Origin: a virus
DNA: 21,017 bases
Reading direction: 5' to 3' (one strand)
Virus record (IMG/VR): IMGVR_UViG_3300035034_002172
Location: 1 to 21,017 of that record
Shown here one piece after another: positions 839 through 19,379 of the stretch (position 1 is its first letter; each line of letters opens with the position of its first letter). Both the position numbers and the translations under genes were made by a program. A model generated the notes under the pieces. The model made no database searches, was not told where the DNA came from, and saw only the letters and a program-made list of their open reading frames with translations.

Positions 839-983
839 CTTTTATAATTACTGTTTTATTCTCTACGGCACGCACCACAGCGTGATGCACTCCAAGTGTC
901 TTGGCCACCATGCGACGGGACATGCCCCGTCCGCGTAGTAGTCGTGCTTTTATAGCCAGAGGTCTTGATATTTCTTTCTTCAT
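819..983 (-). CDS. Small helix-turn-helix protein, 54 aa
   Basis: A 54-residue ORF starts at ATG 981-983, whose first bases overlap the TGA of the thymidylate-kinase-like gene (ATGA, 4-nt overlap), and ends with TAA at 819-821 inside the start of the 93-aa gene. The central segment GMSRRMVAKTLGVHHAVVRA fits a helix-turn-helix of the kind in recombinase, resolvase and transposase N-terminal domains: a helix, a turn around Gly, then a basic recognition helix. The protein is strongly basic in its N-terminal half. Likely a DNA-binding regulator or nucleoid-type protein; the target is unknown. The fold is inferred from the pattern only. Confidence 0.72.
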   Translation of the reverse strand: MKKEISRPLAIKARLLRGRGMSRRMVAKTLGVHHAVVRAVENKTVIIKDENKDS

Positions 984-1624
984 TTATTTTTGATCATGTA
1001 CTTGAGATACTTCTCGGTGGCACTCCACACTTCTTCTTCGGAGTTATTGGCGTCGATCGTGTAGATGTCGACATGGCTCCCTGGTAAGATGGAGTGCGCG
1101 AAGTCGTAGGCTGTAGCTATACGGCCCAAAGTGGCGGGGTCCTTCTCAAATATGGTAAGTTCATCACCACTCTCTAGCACACGCTTGCGTGCATTCTCCG
1201 GGGTTACGGAGTAGACGAGGTAGCTCTCTGGATACAGCTCTACCGGTAGTGCCAGTTTAAGAGCGTCCATCACAGCGTAGATGCTGCGTCCAGGTAACAA
1301 CCCCTGATAGATAAGAGTAGACAGCGTCCATCTGTTTAGGAGTACCCACTTACCAGAACGAAGTGCGGGGTGTATTAATTCCACCGCGGATGACACTAGG
1401 CTAAGTAACATAGCCTGTAGTCTAATTCGTTCTGGTAAGTCGTTTCTGAGAAAGTGTTCCCGGACCATTACGGCTAATTCCGTAGTTCCTGGGTTGGACA
1501 CTGTCTCAGTGGCGATACCTTGCGCTTCTAAAAACGCTTCAGCTCGCCGCATTTGTGAGGATTTGTAGGATCCTGCACAGCCCTCGAACGCGATTACGCG
1601 TGGGGATAATTTACTGTCACTCAT
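980..1624 (-). CDS. Thymidylate kinase-like P-loop protein
   Basis: A 214-aa protein with the layout of thymidylate kinase, the enzyme that phosphorylates dTMP to dTDP. Residues 13-23 give the P-loop (FEGCAGSYKSS, K21). Residues 43-55 correspond to the substrate-facing PGGT segment (SNPGTTEL). Residues 97-99 (NRW) sit where the family has the DR(Y/H/F) catalytic motif, followed by the expected STLIYQG. YLVYSVTPENARKRV matches the later core strand and helix. Two departures are visible: Tyr20 replaces the Gly before the P-loop lysine, and Asn97 replaces the catalytic-motif Asp. It may therefore act on another nucleotide or be impaired. Length fits the family (about 205-215). It is coupled to the HTH gene downstream by an ATGA overlap. 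Confidence 0.8.
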   Translation of the reverse strand: MSDSKLSPRVIAFEGCAGSYKSSQMRRAEAFLEAQGIATETVSNPGTTELAVMVREHFLRNDLPERIRLQAMLLSLVSSAVELIHPALRSGKWVLLNRWTLSTLIYQGLLPGRSIYAVMDALKLALPVELYPESYLVYSVTPENARKRVLESGDELTIFEKDPATLGRIATAYDFAHSILPGSHVDIYTIDANNSEEEVWSATEKYLKYMIKNK

Positions 1625-1644
1625 ATATAACTTGGTGTTGGTGG

Positions 1645-2166
1645 TTATTGCAGACCTAGCGCGTCGATGAAGAAGGGTGTCTTTTCCCCTAAACTGGCTC
1701 CCATTATGTTGGTATGCAAGGTTTGTTCTGCTGTAGTTGCATCATCATCGCTGTCCACTTGGGAGTCTATAAGACACTGCTTTGCTTTGATTGGGTCGTA
1801 GACTAGTGCTACGGGTGTGGATCCATCAACCGCGACACCTAAGACGGCATCGAATAAACTATCCCACACGATAAGTTTATACTCTTTAATAATGTGCCTG
1901 AATACGCTACCGGGAGGTTGGATTAAGAACAGTGGTTTGGGCTTCCCTTTAGTTGTGAGGAATCCCTCTACGGATCTTAAGCGTTCCATATAATCATCGT
2001 GTGCCTCGGATGTGAGGAACTTACAAGCCTCTAGGCTGTATAGCACACGCGGTGTGTCATTCTGGCGATGGACGGCGCCCATAATGGCGGTATCCATGTT
2101 GTCCCCAAGGAAGTGAAATATCGCCCATGGGTATCGGTCTTGAACTATCTTTGATTTATTGTTCAT
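1645..2166 (-). CDS. Hypothetical protein, 173 aa
   Basis: No family recognised. The protein looks globular and mixed alpha/beta, with Trp-Asp-Ser-Leu-Phe-Asp and VAVDGSTPVALVYDP segments in the second half and a short acidic run (DSQVDSDDDATTAEQ) near residue 140. No signal peptide or membrane segment is seen. The start is supported by an AGGA about 8 nt upstream of the ATG. That ATG overlaps by ATGA the stop of a short in-frame ORF following the 2274-2801 gene, suggesting coupling to it. Confidence 0.7.
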   Translation of the reverse strand: MNNKSKIVQDRYPWAIFHFLGDNMDTAIMGAVHRQNDTPRVLYSLEACKFLTSEAHDDYMERLRSVEGFLTTKGKPKPLFLIQPPGSVFRHIIKEYKLIVWDSLFDAVLGVAVDGSTPVALVYDPIKAKQCLIDSQVDSDDDATTAEQTLHTNIMGASLGEKTPFFIDALGLQ

Positions 2167-10428: not shown

Positions 10429-11112
10429 TTATGCAGGTAGCTTAACCACGAGCCCGTCTAAGTCTTGCGCACTGAGCCACCGGTATCTTTTCTTACGGCG
10501 ATCGTAATAGCGCTGGTATAATTTACCGTCCCTACCTATCTTACTGCCCTCAGCCATACGGGTGTCGATGCCCGCCCTCGACGATTCTGGCCCTTCGATA
10601 GAGGATAAGAACCCGAACTGCGAAGTGTTCAACGCCTGAGCCTCCTCCGTAATAGCCTGGTCCGACCCCAAACCCCCGGGGCCCATGAGTGTCATACGTC
10701 GGGCCTGCTCTACGAGCTGCATTGGATTGATCTCCTCCAGAGGCGCAGACAACACACTACCCAGCAGGTGTTGCTCGGTGTAAGGGTCGAAGTAGAATGA
10801 GTGGATGGGTTTCAAGCTCTTGTGCTTCGCGACACGGTAGGCCAGCTGTTGGCGTAGCTTACCAGCATCCATCTGAACTCTTTCACGTAGTAAGTCATTT
10901 GTTCGAAATATCTTCTTAAACTGTAGGTTGTCTCGCTCGTCCGGTGGTTCGACGCCCTTGTTGACCGCTAGAAGCTTCTCAGTGGATGCTAGAATACCTT
11001 CCAGACCTACGGACACACTCTCCTCAACCTCATCATCTTCATAGACGCTGCTGGCTTCTTTGCAGGATTTCGCCTGCTCGAGTTTGTCGAATATGTCGTC
11101 TATAAGGCTCAT
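10429..11112 (-). CDS. RNA polymerase beta subunit fragment (protrusion return, fork and Rif-pocket region)
   Basis: Residues about 57-220 of this 227-aa protein align by eye with bacterial RpoB from roughly E. coli residue 445 to 600. ERDNLQFKKIFRTNDLLRER matches the D-HLGNRR..S.GE segment. NPMQLVEQARRMTLMGPGGL matches the rifampicin-pocket NPL.E..HKRR.SALGPGGL. SIEGPESSRAGI matches PIETPEGPNIGLI, and the end matches the YGFLETPYRKV region. Residues 1-56 are acidic with KEAS at 18-21, perhaps a propeptide. The nucleotide-contacting C-terminal half of beta is absent from the window. The ATG overlaps the upstream 84-aa gene's stop (TAATG), so the three genes from 14070 are translationally coupled. 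Full-length beta is about 1,100-1,400 aa; this is a genuine split piece, since both ends are clean. Confidence 0.85.
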   Translation of the reverse strand: MSLIDDIFDKLEQAKSCKEASSVYEDDEVEESVSVGLEGILASTEKLLAVNKGVEPPDERDNLQFKKIFRTNDLLRERVQMDAGKLRQQLAYRVAKHKSLKPIHSFYFDPYTEQHLLGSVLSAPLEEINPMQLVEQARRMTLMGPGGLGSDQAITEEAQALNTSQFGFLSSIEGPESSRAGIDTRMAEGSKIGRDGKLYQRYYDRRKKRYRWLSAQDLDGLVVKLPA

Positions 11113-11366
11113 TAGAATAGTTTGGTCTGGGTTGGTGCTTTAGGTTTAGACAGTTGATCCGTTATCGACTTCAGCGCACTCTCCGGGTTCCTGAACATTG
11201 GAGACTTTTTGGCTTCTGTAAAGGTCATACGTGCGGCGTCCATTAGGTGTCTGTCAGCCGCATCACGCATACCATGCTTCCACAGAGTGGTGGCTCTCAG
11301 GAATGCCTGTAGTTGCTTCTGCTTAGTCAGCAGCGAGGCTGCCTTGGTGATCTGTTTGTTATTCAT
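11112..11366 (-). CDS. Small basic protein between the two beta fragments, 84 aa
   Basis: A basic helical protein (LLTKQKQLQAFLRATTLWKH, DAADRHLMDAARMTFTEAKK) with KAAS at residues 8-11 and a Pro/Lys-rich C-terminus. No RpoB similarity is seen, so it interrupts the split polymerase gene. It starts by an 8-nt overlap (ATGAATAA) with the 903-aa gene and ends by a TAATG overlap with the next beta fragment. It may be a scaffold, an assembly factor or a small polymerase-associated protein; unknown. Confidence 0.68.
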   Translation of the reverse strand: MNNKQITKAASLLTKQKQLQAFLRATTLWKHGMRDAADRHLMDAARMTFTEAKKSPMFRNPESALKSITDQLSKPKAPTQTKLF

Positions 11367-14070
11367 GTCCGAATGCCGCTATGTCTGCTTCAGCTGAGCG
11401 GCGGCGTCCTTCCTCAGGACTCTGCGCGTAGCCTAGTAGTTCGTGTTGAGTGATGATGCGGTGACTTGCGCACTCCTCGCCTGGGTGTGTTACTTGGAGG
11501 GATGCGCTCTTCAGCTCGCCCGTGTTCTCCTCCACCCCGACAGCTCTGTCGTCGAATAGTTTAACCATCCCAGGTGTCTTACGGTTGGTCACCTCCATAG
11601 GTGGTAGCTTGTGTGTTGCGAGCCACGCCTCCACGAGCTTGCGCTGCGGTTCGCTGACAGCTCTCGCCGTGAACACCTTCACTTCTTTACCCTCATCGAT
11701 CCATGCGTTGACGCGGTCTACCATCTTTTTGATGGGTTGTCCGATGATAGCCGGGTTAAACTTCTTCCCGTCTCCACTATTCTCCGCGAGTGTGCCGTCG
11801 AGGTCGACTGCAATGTACGGAGCCTCCTTCTTGGAGCGCCCGCGGTACTTCTTCTGAAACTTACGGAGGTCCTTAACCTGTGGTCCTATGTAATCCGGAT
11901 CATCTAAAGTGGACTCCACCAATATAACCTTCTCTGTCTTAGAGTTGGTAGCCTGGTACGTGCCGGCACTCAGTCCATGATCGTATGCGATAAACAGAGG
12001 GCAATCCTTGAACTTCCCACGCGACTGGTAGCCGAGTAGTGCAATCTTATCCGACATCTCCAAAGGATCTAGCCCGAACTCCTCACGCATCTCTCGGAGT
12101 ATGGTCTGCTTCAAATTCGAATCCCGCTTGTCCTTACCGCCGCCAGCGGGGCGTAGCTTGCCTACAAGCTTTGGGTCCATACCCTCCTCCGCATAGTTCT
12201 CCTCTAGGAGGAACTTACCGTCAGGCTGAGCGAACAGAACCCCGGCGCCGAATCGGGCGAGCTTCTGCATAATGCGTAGGCCTTCCGGGGCAGAGCTTGC
12301 CTTAGTGAATGTTGATCCGATCGGCGCCTCGGCCGGTGCCGGTACAACTGGAGCCAGTTTAGGAGCTTGAGTTGTGACAGGAGCTGCTGTAGTCGCTGCG
12401 TTCGGACGCACCATTGCTTCCAGCGGATCTGCTACGGACACAGGAGCTGCAGGAACCTCCTGTGTGTTGTAGAATTCACGAGGGTCGAACTTACTGCGCG
12501 TATCCCAACCCTTATTAACGCCGTACTTTTCAGGATTCTGCGTACGTAGGCGATCGTAGCGCTCCTGCTGAAGACGCTTTATACTCTCCATGGCAGCATC
12601 GCGATCCATAGCTGGTAGGGCCTTAATGCTAGCAGACCCGAATATACCATCTGCCCCAGCCTCGCCTATATCCAGTCCTTGCTCAAGCATAGCCTGTTGG
12701 AGCATCTTCTGCGCCGCAGCGGGTGATCCATTAACACCTACATCAAACACCTTCTCTCTAAGAGCAGGGTAGTCGTCAGGTAGATAATCAGGCCAGTAGG
12801 AGCGATATATCTCAGTCGCACGCTCGTCAGTCATGTTAGCGATATCTTCACTCGGGTGGGCTTTGGTGCTTATTCCTTTGTTGGTAAACCCTCCAGAGTC
12901 TGTGACCGTCCCACCTTCACGGTCTAGCACACCGCGCACCGCTTGATCAAAGCCTCGTATAGGTTGAGTCACTACGGCTTCCTTCGCAGACGCGGCCTTC
13001 TGCACTGATTTGAGACCCTCTATACCAGCGGCGAGCATAGACGGATTAGACCCTTGGGAACCTGTTACAAAGTCGAGTATCTGCTGCTCGAGCTGTTCAG
13101 CGGGCGCATATAAATCCAACCCTGCCTGGTTCTCATTGTTAAGGAACTGCGCCAACACCTGCAACTCCTCCGAGTTCAACGCAGCGACTTTCACCGTAAC
13201 CTCAGCCTGCTTACACTGCGCATCCTTGGTGTGTAACGCCTCCTTAAGAGAAGCCAGCTCACGCCAGGAAGCGGCCTTCTGTCTCGAAAACATATTTGGT
13301 AGATTACGCTCAGCCACACGTCGCTCCACCTTAGACGAGTCCATAGCCGTCCGCACCGCTGAGATCTTGTCCTCGCGCGTGGCTGCGGGGTCCTGCTTAA
13401 ATTTACTGACAAGACGATCGTAGGCTTTATCCAAAACTCGACTGTCGTATTTGGCCGCGTTGGCTTCTAATATTGCAGGGCCCCAGCGTTTAGCGAGTTC
13501 TTCGTCAGAAGTACCCATGTCTCTCAGCAGGCTATACAGGTGTAAGTTTGCCTGGTGTATGTGGAGCTTATACTGCTTTGTCTCCGGCAGGAATCCTACA
13601 CGGAATGCACTGCCTGTTCCTCGACGCACATTGAATTGAGTCTCCAACTCTCCATTCTTCTTACGCCGTGTGTAAACTCCGGGACGTAGTCTGCCTTGCA
13701 TGATGGAAGCATACTCATTACCTCCGTGGATGAATGTTCCTCGCTCTGTGAGATACGGAACCCTCATCAGAGTGAGATCCTTCTCGTCGAGCATCTCATT
13801 CGTATTATCATCAAAAAGACGCACCTTGCCTCGGAGGCGCCTTGCCAAGTACTTATCCTTAAGTAAGGCCTCCTTCTGCTGCGCAGGATCATACTCCTCT
13901 GGATCTACGTATTCCAGCGATTTCAACTCTGTGCGTATGCCATTATGAGACAGAGGGAATGATTTTTGAAGTGCGTCCTTGGCATCATCAAATATCAACT
14001 TCCGGTGTGTCTGGAAATCTTCAAAGTCGTATAGGTCGACACCTTCTGGAGTTTCGTCAGGGAGTGGCAT
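11359..14070 (-). CDS. Fusion protein: RpoB N-terminal region, GH108 lysozyme, Nudix-like and HAD-like domains
   Basis: A 903-aa multidomain protein. Residues about 20-200 match the N-terminal (protrusion) part of RNA polymerase beta: VPYLTERGTFIHGGNEYASI and MQGRLRPGVY equal the family's IPLMT..GTF.ING.ERV...QL.RSPGVY. Residues 200-360 are helical. Residues 374-530 fit GH108 N-acetylmuramidase with its C-terminal partner: Glu385 in DREGGTV, GGFTNKGIS, FDVGVNGSP, DGIFGSASIKAL. After an Ala/Pro linker (535-590), 600-700 is Nudix-like, with REMREEFGL at 659-667 but Ser651 where the box has Glu. Residues 752-850 are HAD-like: DLDGT at 756-760, VFTARA, LFDDRAVGVEENTG. KAAS (265, 358), KASS (590) and KSAS (854) fall between these units. 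No Shine-Dalgarno is seen. Confidence 0.85.
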   Translation of the reverse strand: MPLPDETPEGVDLYDFEDFQTHRKLIFDDAKDALQKSFPLSHNGIRTELKSLEYVDPEEYDPAQQKEALLKDKYLARRLRGKVRLFDDNTNEMLDEKDLTLMRVPYLTERGTFIHGGNEYASIMQGRLRPGVYTRRKKNGELETQFNVRRGTGSAFRVGFLPETKQYKLHIHQANLHLYSLLRDMGTSDEELAKRWGPAILEANAAKYDSRVLDKAYDRLVSKFKQDPAATREDKISAVRTAMDSSKVERRVAERNLPNMFSRQKAASWRELASLKEALHTKDAQCKQAEVTVKVAALNSEELQVLAQFLNNENQAGLDLYAPAEQLEQQILDFVTGSQGSNPSMLAAGIEGLKSVQKAASAKEAVVTQPIRGFDQAVRGVLDREGGTVTDSGGFTNKGISTKAHPSEDIANMTDERATEIYRSYWPDYLPDDYPALREKVFDVGVNGSPAAAQKMLQQAMLEQGLDIGEAGADGIFGSASIKALPAMDRDAAMESIKRLQQERYDRLRTQNPEKYGVNKGWDTRSKFDPREFYNTQEVPAAPVSVADPLEAMVRPNAATTAAPVTTQAPKLAPVVPAPAEAPIGSTFTKASSAPEGLRIMQKLARFGAGVLFAQPDGKFLLEENYAEEGMDPKLVGKLRPAGGGKDKRDSNLKQTILREMREEFGLDPLEMSDKIALLGYQSRGKFKDCPLFIAYDHGLSAGTYQATNSKTEKVILVESTLDDPDYIGPQVKDLRKFQKKYRGRSKKEAPYIAVDLDGTLAENSGDGKKFNPAIIGQPIKKMVDRVNAWIDEGKEVKVFTARAVSEPQRKLVEAWLATHKLPPMEVTNRKTPGMVKLFDDRAVGVEENTGELKSASLQVTHPGEECASHRIITQHELLGYAQSPEEGRRRSAEADIAAFGHE

Positions 14071-14131: not shown

Positions 14132-14166
14132 AAAAAAGAAAGGACGGGCTGCTACACCCGTCCTTT
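14132..14166 (-). terminator. Intrinsic terminator after the hairpin-rich gene
   Basis: A perfect 10-bp stem (AAAGGACGGG at 14139-14148, CCCGTCCTTT at 14157-14166) with an 8-nt loop is followed on the minus strand by CTTTTTTATC. It lies 14 nt past the stop of the 297-aa gene and before the polymerase-fusion gene, which must therefore have its own promoter in 14071-14131 or depend on readthrough. Confidence 0.88.
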
Positions 14167-14173
14167 CGTCCTT

Positions 14174-15029
14174 CCGCCCTCACATGAGGGGCGGCACTGC
14201 GATATCCGGCTCGATTATATCGAGTATCCGGAGGTCCTGCGAGCGAAGTTCATCCACCGTGAAGTCCAGCTCGCAGCACGCGGGTAACTGTGCGCCTACT
14301 CCTTCGTCGGAGTAGAATTCTTCCTTATCTAGGAGGTGAGTTTGTTTCACCCACCTATCCAGTTGGTTTGCTGGAGTCGACCAGGTTATAAACATGGTCC
14401 GCCCCTCGCGTAACTGATATAAGTGATAAGACGCTCTCAGTCGCAGCAGCTCAATGTCTCCTTCTTCCAAAGGAGACTCGCATACTAGCGAGTATATATC
14501 ATCTATGCTGGAGTAGCCTATTGGATACTCTATTATCTTCAACCGGACTTCCTGTCCGGTGTTGGGGTTCACCCGCAATACTGCGGGTTCCCCCTTCTCC
14601 GCCTCTACGGCCATAACTGGTATGACCGGGGATTGGCATAGGGCGTGCCGATACCTGAGGAATTCCCACATCTCTGTGGTCTTCCTCAGGTGGTATTGGT
14701 ATTCCATCCCCGCCGGGGTTTGGATTTCCCTAACTACCCCCAACACGTGGTGAGGGAGGTCGGGTCTTATGTGGTAGGACCCGGACGGGGTCCTCAATCT
14801 AACCCGGTCAAGGGTCGGAGTGAGGCTTATCCCCTGTGAGGTCATCGCCGCCCCGCGCTGGAGGTCGTCCTCCGAGACCTCCAGCCCATCGGAGCTCCAG
14901 GTTATCTTTCGAGGGGTTGTCCCCTCGAAAAGCAAGTCCGCACAATAGCGGACTAGCTCGAGGTTATCAACACTGGGGTCTCCCCCAGTGTTGATGATTG
15001 GCACTGCCTGGGCGTGGCCCAAGTAGTGC
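14174..15029 (-). repeat. Dense array of perfect inverted repeats inside a coding sequence
   Basis: About twenty stems lie head to tail. The strongest are 14966-14978/14983-14995 (13 bp), 14907-14916/14921-14930 (10 bp), 14857-14866/14876-14885 (10 bp) and 14653-14662/14682-14691 (10 bp, with inner CCACA/TGTGG). Next come 14456-14463/14470-14477 (8), 14237-14244/14269-14276 (8), 14542-14548/14554-14560 (7), 14571-14577/14582-14588 (7), 14296-14302/14309-14315 (7), 14776-14782/14788-14794 (7) and 14935-14941/14948-14954 (7). There is a nested pair at 15001-15029 (GCACT and TGGGC arms) and one over the stop codon at 14174-14194. On the mRNA strand two loops are GAGA, a GNRA tetraloop. Other genes in the window show only occasional stems. 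Confidence 0.9.
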
Positions 15030-15073
15030 TGTTCAAACTTAACCGCGTGCGCTACAATTGATTTTGATTTCAT
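14180..15073 (-). CDS. Unknown 297-aa protein encoded by a hairpin-tiled gene
   Basis: No family recognised. The protein is soluble, mixed alpha/beta and mildly acidic, without signal peptide, membrane segment or K-x-A-S motif. Features include INTGGDPSVDNLELV near the N-terminus, TPSGSYHIRPDLPHHVLGVV in the middle, a long helical stretch (ELLRLRASYHLYQLREGRT) and a cysteine pair near the end (LPACCELDF). The striking feature is the DNA: the coding sequence is a chain of perfect short inverted repeats, so codon choice appears to serve structure as well as protein. The gene is monocistronic, with two hairpins in its leader and an intrinsic terminator behind it. No Shine-Dalgarno is visible; an AT-rich 24-nt leader precedes the ATG. 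The frame is well supported by the clean 5' and 3' borders. Confidence 0.75.
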   Translation of the reverse strand: MKSKSIVAHAVKFEQHYLGHAQAVPIINTGGDPSVDNLELVRYCADLLFEGTTPRKITWSSDGLEVSEDDLQRGAAMTSQGISLTPTLDRVRLRTPSGSYHIRPDLPHHVLGVVREIQTPAGMEYQYHLRKTTEMWEFLRYRHALCQSPVIPVMAVEAEKGEPAVLRVNPNTGQEVRLKIIEYPIGYSSIDDIYSLVCESPLEEGDIELLRLRASYHLYQLREGRTMFITWSTPANQLDRWVKQTHLLDKEEFYSDEGVGAQLPACCELDFTVDELRSQDLRILDIIEPDIAVPPLM

Positions 15074-15096
15074 AGTTATATTTTTTTATTTTTTAC

Positions 15097-15144
15097 GGAG
15101 TCACAGGAACGTGACTCCTAGAATAGTAGAGTCTTCTACTATTC
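15097..15144 (-). promoter_or_regulatory. Two tandem leader hairpins upstream of the 297-aa gene
   Basis: Two perfect inverted repeats lie 2 nt apart: GAATAGTAGA/TCTACTATTC (15121-15144, 10 bp, 4-nt loop) and GGAGTCAC/GTGACTCC (15097-15118, 8 bp, 6-nt loop). On the minus strand they are followed by an A-rich tract, not U-rich, so they are not ordinary terminators for this direction. They sit in the leader 24 nt before the start codon. AT-rich sequence farther upstream (15145-15173, with TTATATAAG and ATTATAAGG) may hold the promoter. Confidence 0.75.
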
Positions 15145-15173
15145 TTATATAACTAGAAATACCTTATAATTGC

Positions 15174-18938: not shown

Positions 18939-19379
18939 TTATAAGCTGAATGCGGATACGGGTATGGAAACTATGGAATACCCGTATTTAGAATCCGTAC
19001 CCATTAATAACTTCGGCGCCGGCATGCTTGATACCAGGCCTGCTACGATGCTGGAGAGTGTTCCGCCACTCTCCATCGTAGCCATACATATAAACAAGCT
19101 TTCCTTGCTCGGCAGCTGAGCGTCTTGCACGAGATGGTAGCGATCCTGATCCTCCATTAAACACTGCGTCAAAAGACTCTTATATTTAGGTAGGACTGTA
19201 TTGGTCACTACATGCACTTTTTCCGGCACAAAGTTCACCTCACTAAATAGCAAAGGAATCTCTATAACCGGGTCCATGTCTAGCTCGTTGAGGAGCTCTT
19301 CCAGCCCACACTCCGATAAGTTGGGCCGTCGGAATATTCTAGTAAGGTGCTTAACTACACTACTTTGACTTACCTGCAT
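18939..19379 (-). CDS. Hypothetical protein, 146 aa
   Basis: It begins 20 nt inside the end of recA and is preceded by AGGAGG 6 nt before the ATG, the clearest ribosome-binding site in the window; that site is built into the Glu/Asp codons of the RecA C-terminus. The N-terminal 30 residues resemble a small helical region (SSVVKHLTRIFRRPNLSECG). The C-terminal part is hydrophobic and Gly/Ser-rich (SGGTLSSIVAGLVSSMPAP). No family recognised; it could be a recombination mediator because of its place, but no sequence evidence shows this. Confidence 0.66.
   Translation of the reverse strand: MQVSQSSVVKHLTRIFRRPNLSECGLEELLNELDMDPVIEIPLLFSEVNFVPEKVHVVTNTVLPKYKSLLTQCLMEDQDRYHLVQDAQLPSKESLFICMATMESGGTLSSIVAGLVSSMPAPKLLMGTDSKYGYSIVSIPVSAFSL

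What the first reader, a model, noticed from the sequence alone, without database searches (positions are those of the whole stretch)
14132..15144. A protein gene whose coding sequence is a chain of perfect hairpins
The whole transcription unit, from two leader hairpins through a 297-codon ORF to the terminator, is tiled with inverted repeats: twelve or so stems of 7-13 bp, several nested, every 30-60 nt, covering roughly a third of the coding bases. The 13-bp stem at 14966-14995 encodes INTGGDPSVD and the 10-bp stem at 14907-14930 encodes FEGTTPR, so ordinary protein sequence is written with codons that also make near-perfect palindromes. Neighbouring genes do not show this. Two loops are GAGA (GNRA) on the mRNA strand. 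Possible roles: a dual-function RNA carried in particles or acting as scaffold or decoy, an RNase-resistant or translation-limited mRNA, single-strand DNA structures read by a phage nuclease, or a product of template-switch palindrome correction.
Basis: partly seen in the sequence, partly recalled or inferred. Interest (0 to 1): 0.88.

Follow-up and report, generated by a model that had tools for sequence, protein, structure and literature searches.

The report
Phage gene selected for self-folding mRNA
A little-known group of large bacterial viruses has at least one working protein gene whose messenger RNA is written, through silent codon choice, to fold into an almost unbroken chain of hairpins, probably to make that message hard to destroy; this is rare in DNA viruses and can be tested directly.

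Summary
The 297-codon ORF (14180-15073, -) folds about 14 kcal/mol per 100 nt more stably than synonymous-codon shuffles of itself (z -9 to -19), the most extreme of roughly 750 phage genes scored; none of 201 T4, lambda, phiKZ or Arash genes passes -6. Its protein is an orphan, but the same slot (just before RNA polymerase beta) in related phages holds 300-330 aa genes, also over-folded in 7 of 7 homologs of the best sampled family. That family is under protein-level purifying selection and its synonymous sites are saturated, so folding is a maintained bulk property while individual hairpins turn over. Stems in the adjoining small gene covary. The excess is stronger on the sense strand across 35 transcripts of one promoter class (GCAAY-N15-YTATATA), whose first genes are more folded than other genes (p = 5e-6). 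I read this as RNA-level selection for a compact, nuclease-resistant mRNA: 5' double hairpin, exposed A-rich start, hairpin body, terminator. The role in decay is inferred. Rivals: palindrome-making mutation, translational control, a specific functional RNA. New variant of a known kind.

The parts
15146..15173 (-). Promoter-like motif GCAAT-N16-TTATATA upstream of the leader hairpins; same class as motifs before hp in L004 and the L007 group
   Evidence: Pattern scan, intergenic, rare in reversed-sequence controls; not tested as a promoter
15120..15145 (-). Leader hairpin 1, 11-bp perfect stem, at the presumed 5' end of the transcript
   Evidence: I2; leader z -7.2
15097..15118 (-). Leader hairpin 2, 8-bp perfect stem
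   Evidence: I12
15074..15096 (-). Unpaired A-rich stretch before the start codon, no Shine-Dalgarno
   Evidence: (centroid); relatives also lack Shine-Dalgarno
14180..15073 (-). hp ORF, 297 aa, orphan protein, body of the hairpin chain
   Evidence: no Pfam or PHROG match; over-folding
14966..14995 (-). 13-bp perfect stem, GAGA loop
   Evidence: I1
14931..14958 (-). 11-bp stem, 91% complementary
   Evidence: I8
14907..14930 (-). 10-bp perfect stem
   Evidence: I6
14857..14885 (-). 10-bp perfect stem
   Evidence: I5
14761..14794 (-). Two alternative stems, 9 bp (14761-14783) and 7 bp (14776-14794)
   Evidence: I13 and I19
14653..14691 (-). 10-bp perfect stem enclosing a 5-bp stem with GAGA loop
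   Evidence: I9
14571..14588 (-). 7-bp perfect stem
   Evidence: I18
14542..14560 (-). 7-bp perfect stem
   Evidence: I17
14456..14477 (-). 8-bp perfect stem
   Evidence: I11
14296..14315 (-). 7-bp perfect stem
   Evidence: I15
14234..14279 (-). 11-bp stem, 91% complementary
   Evidence: I7
14132..14167 (-). Intrinsic-terminator-like hairpin, 11-bp stem followed by a T run
   Evidence: (I3)
980..1651 (-). Second site of the promoter motif (1624-1651) and the thymidylate kinase-like gene behind it (980-1624), also over-folded
   Evidence: dE -5.3

Best explanation
The unit is one transcript of a large tailed phage with its own multisubunit RNA polymerase. A promoter-like motif (GCAAY-N15-YTATATA) starts an mRNA that begins with a double hairpin, exposes only an A-rich start site, encodes a real protein in a body folded into successive local hairpins, and ends at a terminator hairpin. 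Shown by computation: the over-folding, its recurrence in the homolog family, the sense-strand bias there, purifying selection on that protein family, and the link to the promoter class. Inferred: the folding is selected as a bulk property because it leaves few single-stranded entry sites for endonucleases and closed ends for exonucleases, giving a long-lived message for a few phage genes. That these are early genes, or that the virion polymerase reads the motif, is a further guess.
For: Over-folding against synonymous shuffles, absent from 201 control phage genes. 7 of 7 members of the A4 family over-folded, z -3.5 to -10, although their codons agree at only 41-55% of conserved residues and dS is saturated, so the state must be renewed. 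Sense-strand excess beyond antisense in that family and in 35 promoter-class transcripts, p = 2.7e-5; GNRA tetraloops on sense only, 7 to 0 with two overlapping counts. Covarying stems in the adjoining small gene of relatives. First ORFs behind the motif more over-folded than others, p = 5e-6, and 1.6e-5 without the window gene. Start region unpaired. Folded coding sequence lengthens functional half-life in engineered mRNAs (PMC6883848).
Against: No RNA data at all. The window gene itself is strand-symmetric and poor in GU pairs, which a DNA-level or mutational cause would also give. Pairs inside the ORF are hardly conserved: both-sides-changed pairs kept 39.6% against 34.6% in controls. L004, the nearest relative by portal, is only mildly over-folded. 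Some first ORFs behind the motif are not over-folded, and 18939-19379 is over-folded without the motif. The motif was noticed beside this gene before it was tested.
Confidence: 0.45

Rival explanations
1. Mutational origin: template switching at quasi-palindromes keeps turning imperfect inverted repeats into perfect hairpins in these genes, with little or no function of the folding.
For: The window gene is equally over-folded on both strands and its stems are unusually perfect, GU fraction 0.067 against 0.105 in shuffles. Hairpins turn over between homologs.
Against: Sense-strand bias in the homolog family and in promoter-class transcripts; covarying stems in the adjoining gene; concentration in a few genes behind one promoter class needs an extra assumption.
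Confidence: 0.17
2. Translational control: the hairpins slow or pace ribosomes, or hide internal start codons in a host that does not use Shine-Dalgarno sites, so that little or well-timed protein is made.
For: Relatives lack Shine-Dalgarno (4-15% of genes); the hp start region alone is unpaired; the ORF favours codons otherwise less used in the window, such as GGG and ACC.
Against: The hairpins also fill the leader, where they cannot pace elongation. The codon bias can be a by-product of pairing.
Confidence: 0.15
3. A specific dual-function RNA: the transcript folds into one defined architecture that binds a partner, acts as decoy or scaffold, or is packaged.
For: Two covarying stems in the small gene preceding hp in relatives; alifold energy of the hp family lower than column-synonymous controls, z about -3 with seven and -1.8 with six sequences.
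Against: Pairs inside the ORF are barely conserved; no Rfam match.
Confidence: 0.1
4. Co-transcriptional protection: folding of the nascent RNA prevents Rho loading or R-loops on strongly transcribed phage units.
For: Over-folding is linked to a promoter class and to its first genes and is RNA-level.
Against: Nothing here tests Rho or R-loops.
Confidence: 0.07
5. DNA-level structures (cruciforms or single-strand hairpins read by a nuclease or the packaging or replication machinery).
For: Strand symmetry of the window gene.
Against: Sense-strand bias of the homolog family and transcript class.
Confidence: 0.04

Closest known systems
Genome-scale ordered RNA structure (GORS) of RNA viruses
   Same: Pervasive folding of coding RNA beyond codon-preserving expectation, kept as a bulk property while individual stems change
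   Different: A few genes of a double-stranded DNA phage rather than an RNA genome; tied to a promoter class
General selection on local mRNA folding in coding sequences (delta-LFE; Peeri and Tuller 2020, PMC7063772)
   Same: Same kind of measure; folding stronger than in randomised coding sequences inside the CDS
   Different: That is described there as genome-wide profiles; here one gene stands about 12 kcal/mol per 100 nt beyond the median of its neighbours
Highly structured, long-lived engineered mRNAs (PMC6883848)
   Same: Folded coding sequence; there shown to raise functional half-life
   Different: Engineered messages in animal cells; here natural and in a phage, with half-life unmeasured
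Stable phage T4 gene 32 mRNA (PMC3014915)
   Same: A phage message that is exceptionally stable, with a structured leader
   Different: Structure in the T4 case is a leader pseudoknot and stability also depends on translation; no hairpin-filled ORF
Salmonella phage Arash and Vibrio phage D181
   Same: Homologous portal and RNA polymerase beta, in related order
   Different: 20-28% identity; no hp homolog found there; no Arash gene scored passes -6

Membership tests
GORS-like coding RNA structure | Folding energy lower than sequence-order-randomised controls that keep protein and codons | tested here: met
GORS-like coding RNA structure | Maintained across homologs without conservation of individual pairs | tested here: met
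   for the A4 family; the window protein joins it by gene order only
GORS-like coding RNA structure | Property of a whole RNA genome | tested here: not met
   Confined to a few genes of a DNA phage
Nuclease-resistant mRNA | Longer half-life than ordinary transcripts | not testable with these tools
   Needs RNA decay measurements
Nuclease-resistant mRNA | Hairpin at or near the 5' end | tested here: met
   the start site itself is inferred
Known Rfam RNA (for example ROOL or GOLLD) | Match above the curated threshold | tested here: not met
Specific conserved RNA architecture in the hp ORF | Covarying pairs across homologs | tested here: inconclusive
   Weak in the ORF; clear only in the adjoining small gene
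Arash/D181-like phages | Homologous portal and RNA polymerase beta | tested here: met
Arash/D181-like phages | RNA polymerase carried in the virion | not testable with these tools
   Reported for Arash (PMC10585845); inferred here by homology

The most novel reading that the evidence does not exclude
A double-stranded DNA phage lineage marks one set of its transcripts, defined by a phage promoter class, with armour written in synonymous codons: a naturally evolved class of highly folded mRNAs that outlasts other messages.
Probability: 0.33. Interest if true: 0.82.

Novelty: new variant of a known kind. Interest (0 to 1): 0.62.

Why it matters
Pervasive folding of coding RNA is known in RNA viruses and as a mild trend in cells. 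Here it appears in extreme form in a few genes of a DNA phage, is tied to a promoter class, and is kept while synonymous sites saturate. That offers a natural test of what coding-region structure does to the life and translation of an mRNA, a question otherwise studied mainly with engineered messages.

Tried and rejected
Chance or base composition: rejected by synonymous and dinucleotide shuffles. Known RNA family: no Rfam match. Inserted repeat family: the stems share no sequence. Known protein family or fold: no Pfam or PHROG match and no convincing PDB or Foldseek match; the window protein modelled alone is uninformative (pLDDT 31) and the A4-family model weak (54). Homology of the window protein to the A4 family: not detectable by hhalign, so the link is gene order. 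GU against AC mismatches as an RNA test: too few cases, 10 against 8. Pairs shared between homologs were discounted because shared descent inflates them; the stricter test shows little pair conservation. More homologs in genome contigs and phages: none.

Full report
Observation. The ORF at 14180-15073 (-) carries 11 perfect stems of 7 bp or more where synonymous shuffles give about 1.5, and its local folding energy lies 9 to 19 standard deviations below those shuffles, depending on the measure. In the survey (754 gene entries, partly redundant between related phages) it is the extreme; none of 201 genes of T4, lambda, Arash and phiKZ passes -6 kcal/mol per 100 nt against its -13.8. The stems share no sequence, so they are not an inserted repeat.

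Setting. The window is a 21-kb fragment of a phage related to Salmonella phage Arash and Vibrio phage D181 by portal and RNA polymerase beta. In Arash the beta homolog is the most detected protein of purified particles (PMC10585845). The hp gene lies just before the beta gene. Related contigs L004, L007, L008, L011, L017, L019, L020 and L023 carry a 300-330 aa gene in that slot. The window protein shows no detectable similarity to the A4 family, so it is placed there by gene order, and the family evidence below applies to it only by that analogy.

Conservation. Seven members of the A4 family (L007, L008, L017, L020, L053, L054, L058) are all over-folded, z -3.5 to -10. The family is under protein-level purifying selection: dN 0.2-0.5 with dS at or above 1.7 where it could be computed, that is near saturation, so ratios are rough. 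Synonymous codons agree at 41-55% of conserved residues, less than in the portal gene at 56-66%. Individual pairs inside the ORF are hardly conserved. What is kept is the degree of folding. In the small membrane-protein gene that precedes hp in these relatives, two stems covary: 97.3% of cells paired, seven pairs changed on both sides, none of 500 shuffles as high, slid controls far lower; the shuffles do not correct for relatedness.

Strand. A4-family members are more over-folded on the sense than on the antisense strand, by 1.1 to 5.1 kcal/mol per 100 nt against a mean of 0.5 (sd 1.5) in 40 ordinary genes. For 35 transcripts of the promoter class the paired test gives p = 2.7e-5, though homologous transcripts are not independent. 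GNRA tetraloops occur 7 times on sense and never on antisense, two of the seven being one hairpin counted twice. This speaks for selection on RNA. The window gene alone is strand-symmetric, so for it a mutational or DNA-level source is not excluded.

Transcription unit. A motif GCAAY-N15-YTATATA lies upstream of hp in the window, L004 and the L007 group; 27 sites in five sequences against 4 in reversed controls, all but one intergenic. First ORFs behind the motif or its variant are more over-folded than other ORFs: n = 21, mean -4.8 against -1.8, p = 5e-6, and 1.6e-5 without the window gene. Many of its transcripts begin with a hairpin whose sequence differs from site to site; leaders are more folded than 60-nt stretches upstream of random genes, p = 0.001. 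The motif was noticed beside this gene before it was tested, hp relatives are among the first ORFs, and some first ORFs are not over-folded.

Mechanism. I propose an mRNA armoured against decay: closed 5' end, few single-stranded sites, closed 3' end, and one exposed start. Folding and its RNA-level nature in the family are shown by computation; the effect on decay is inferred, supported by analogy with engineered mRNAs (PMC6883848). Translational pacing, protection of nascent RNA, a specific functional RNA and palindrome-making mutation remain open.

Verdict. A real and unusual feature, best filed as a new variant of a known kind: bulk selection for folded coding RNA, here in a few genes of a DNA phage.

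Noticed in passing
11359-14070 and 10429-11112 (-): RNA polymerase beta is split: the first ORF has a beta-like N-terminus followed by GH108 lysozyme, NUDIX and HAD/PNKP-like phosphatase modules, and beta continues in a separate ORF.
   Followed up: partly
18939-19379 (-): Orphan 146-aa ORF, strongly over-folded on the sense strand (dE -8.7 against -3.1 antisense) without the promoter motif upstream.
   Followed up: partly
L007:20107-20733 (G001:39816-40442), with relatives in L008 and L017: Second over-folded gene family of this group (208 aa, dE -10.3 in G001, the top of its contig), directly behind a variant of the promoter motif.
   Followed up: partly
Window, G001, G002, G003, G006: Relatives largely lack Shine-Dalgarno sites and have A-rich start contexts, and the promoter motif resembles TAnnTTTG boxes, hinting at a Bacteroidota-like host; the host was not determined.
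   Followed up: no
L007 group, downstream of hp: A terminator-like hairpin AAAGAGCTCGCGGATAACTACCGCGCCTCTTTTTT is nearly identical across homologs whose proteins are only 28-70% identical.
   Followed up: no
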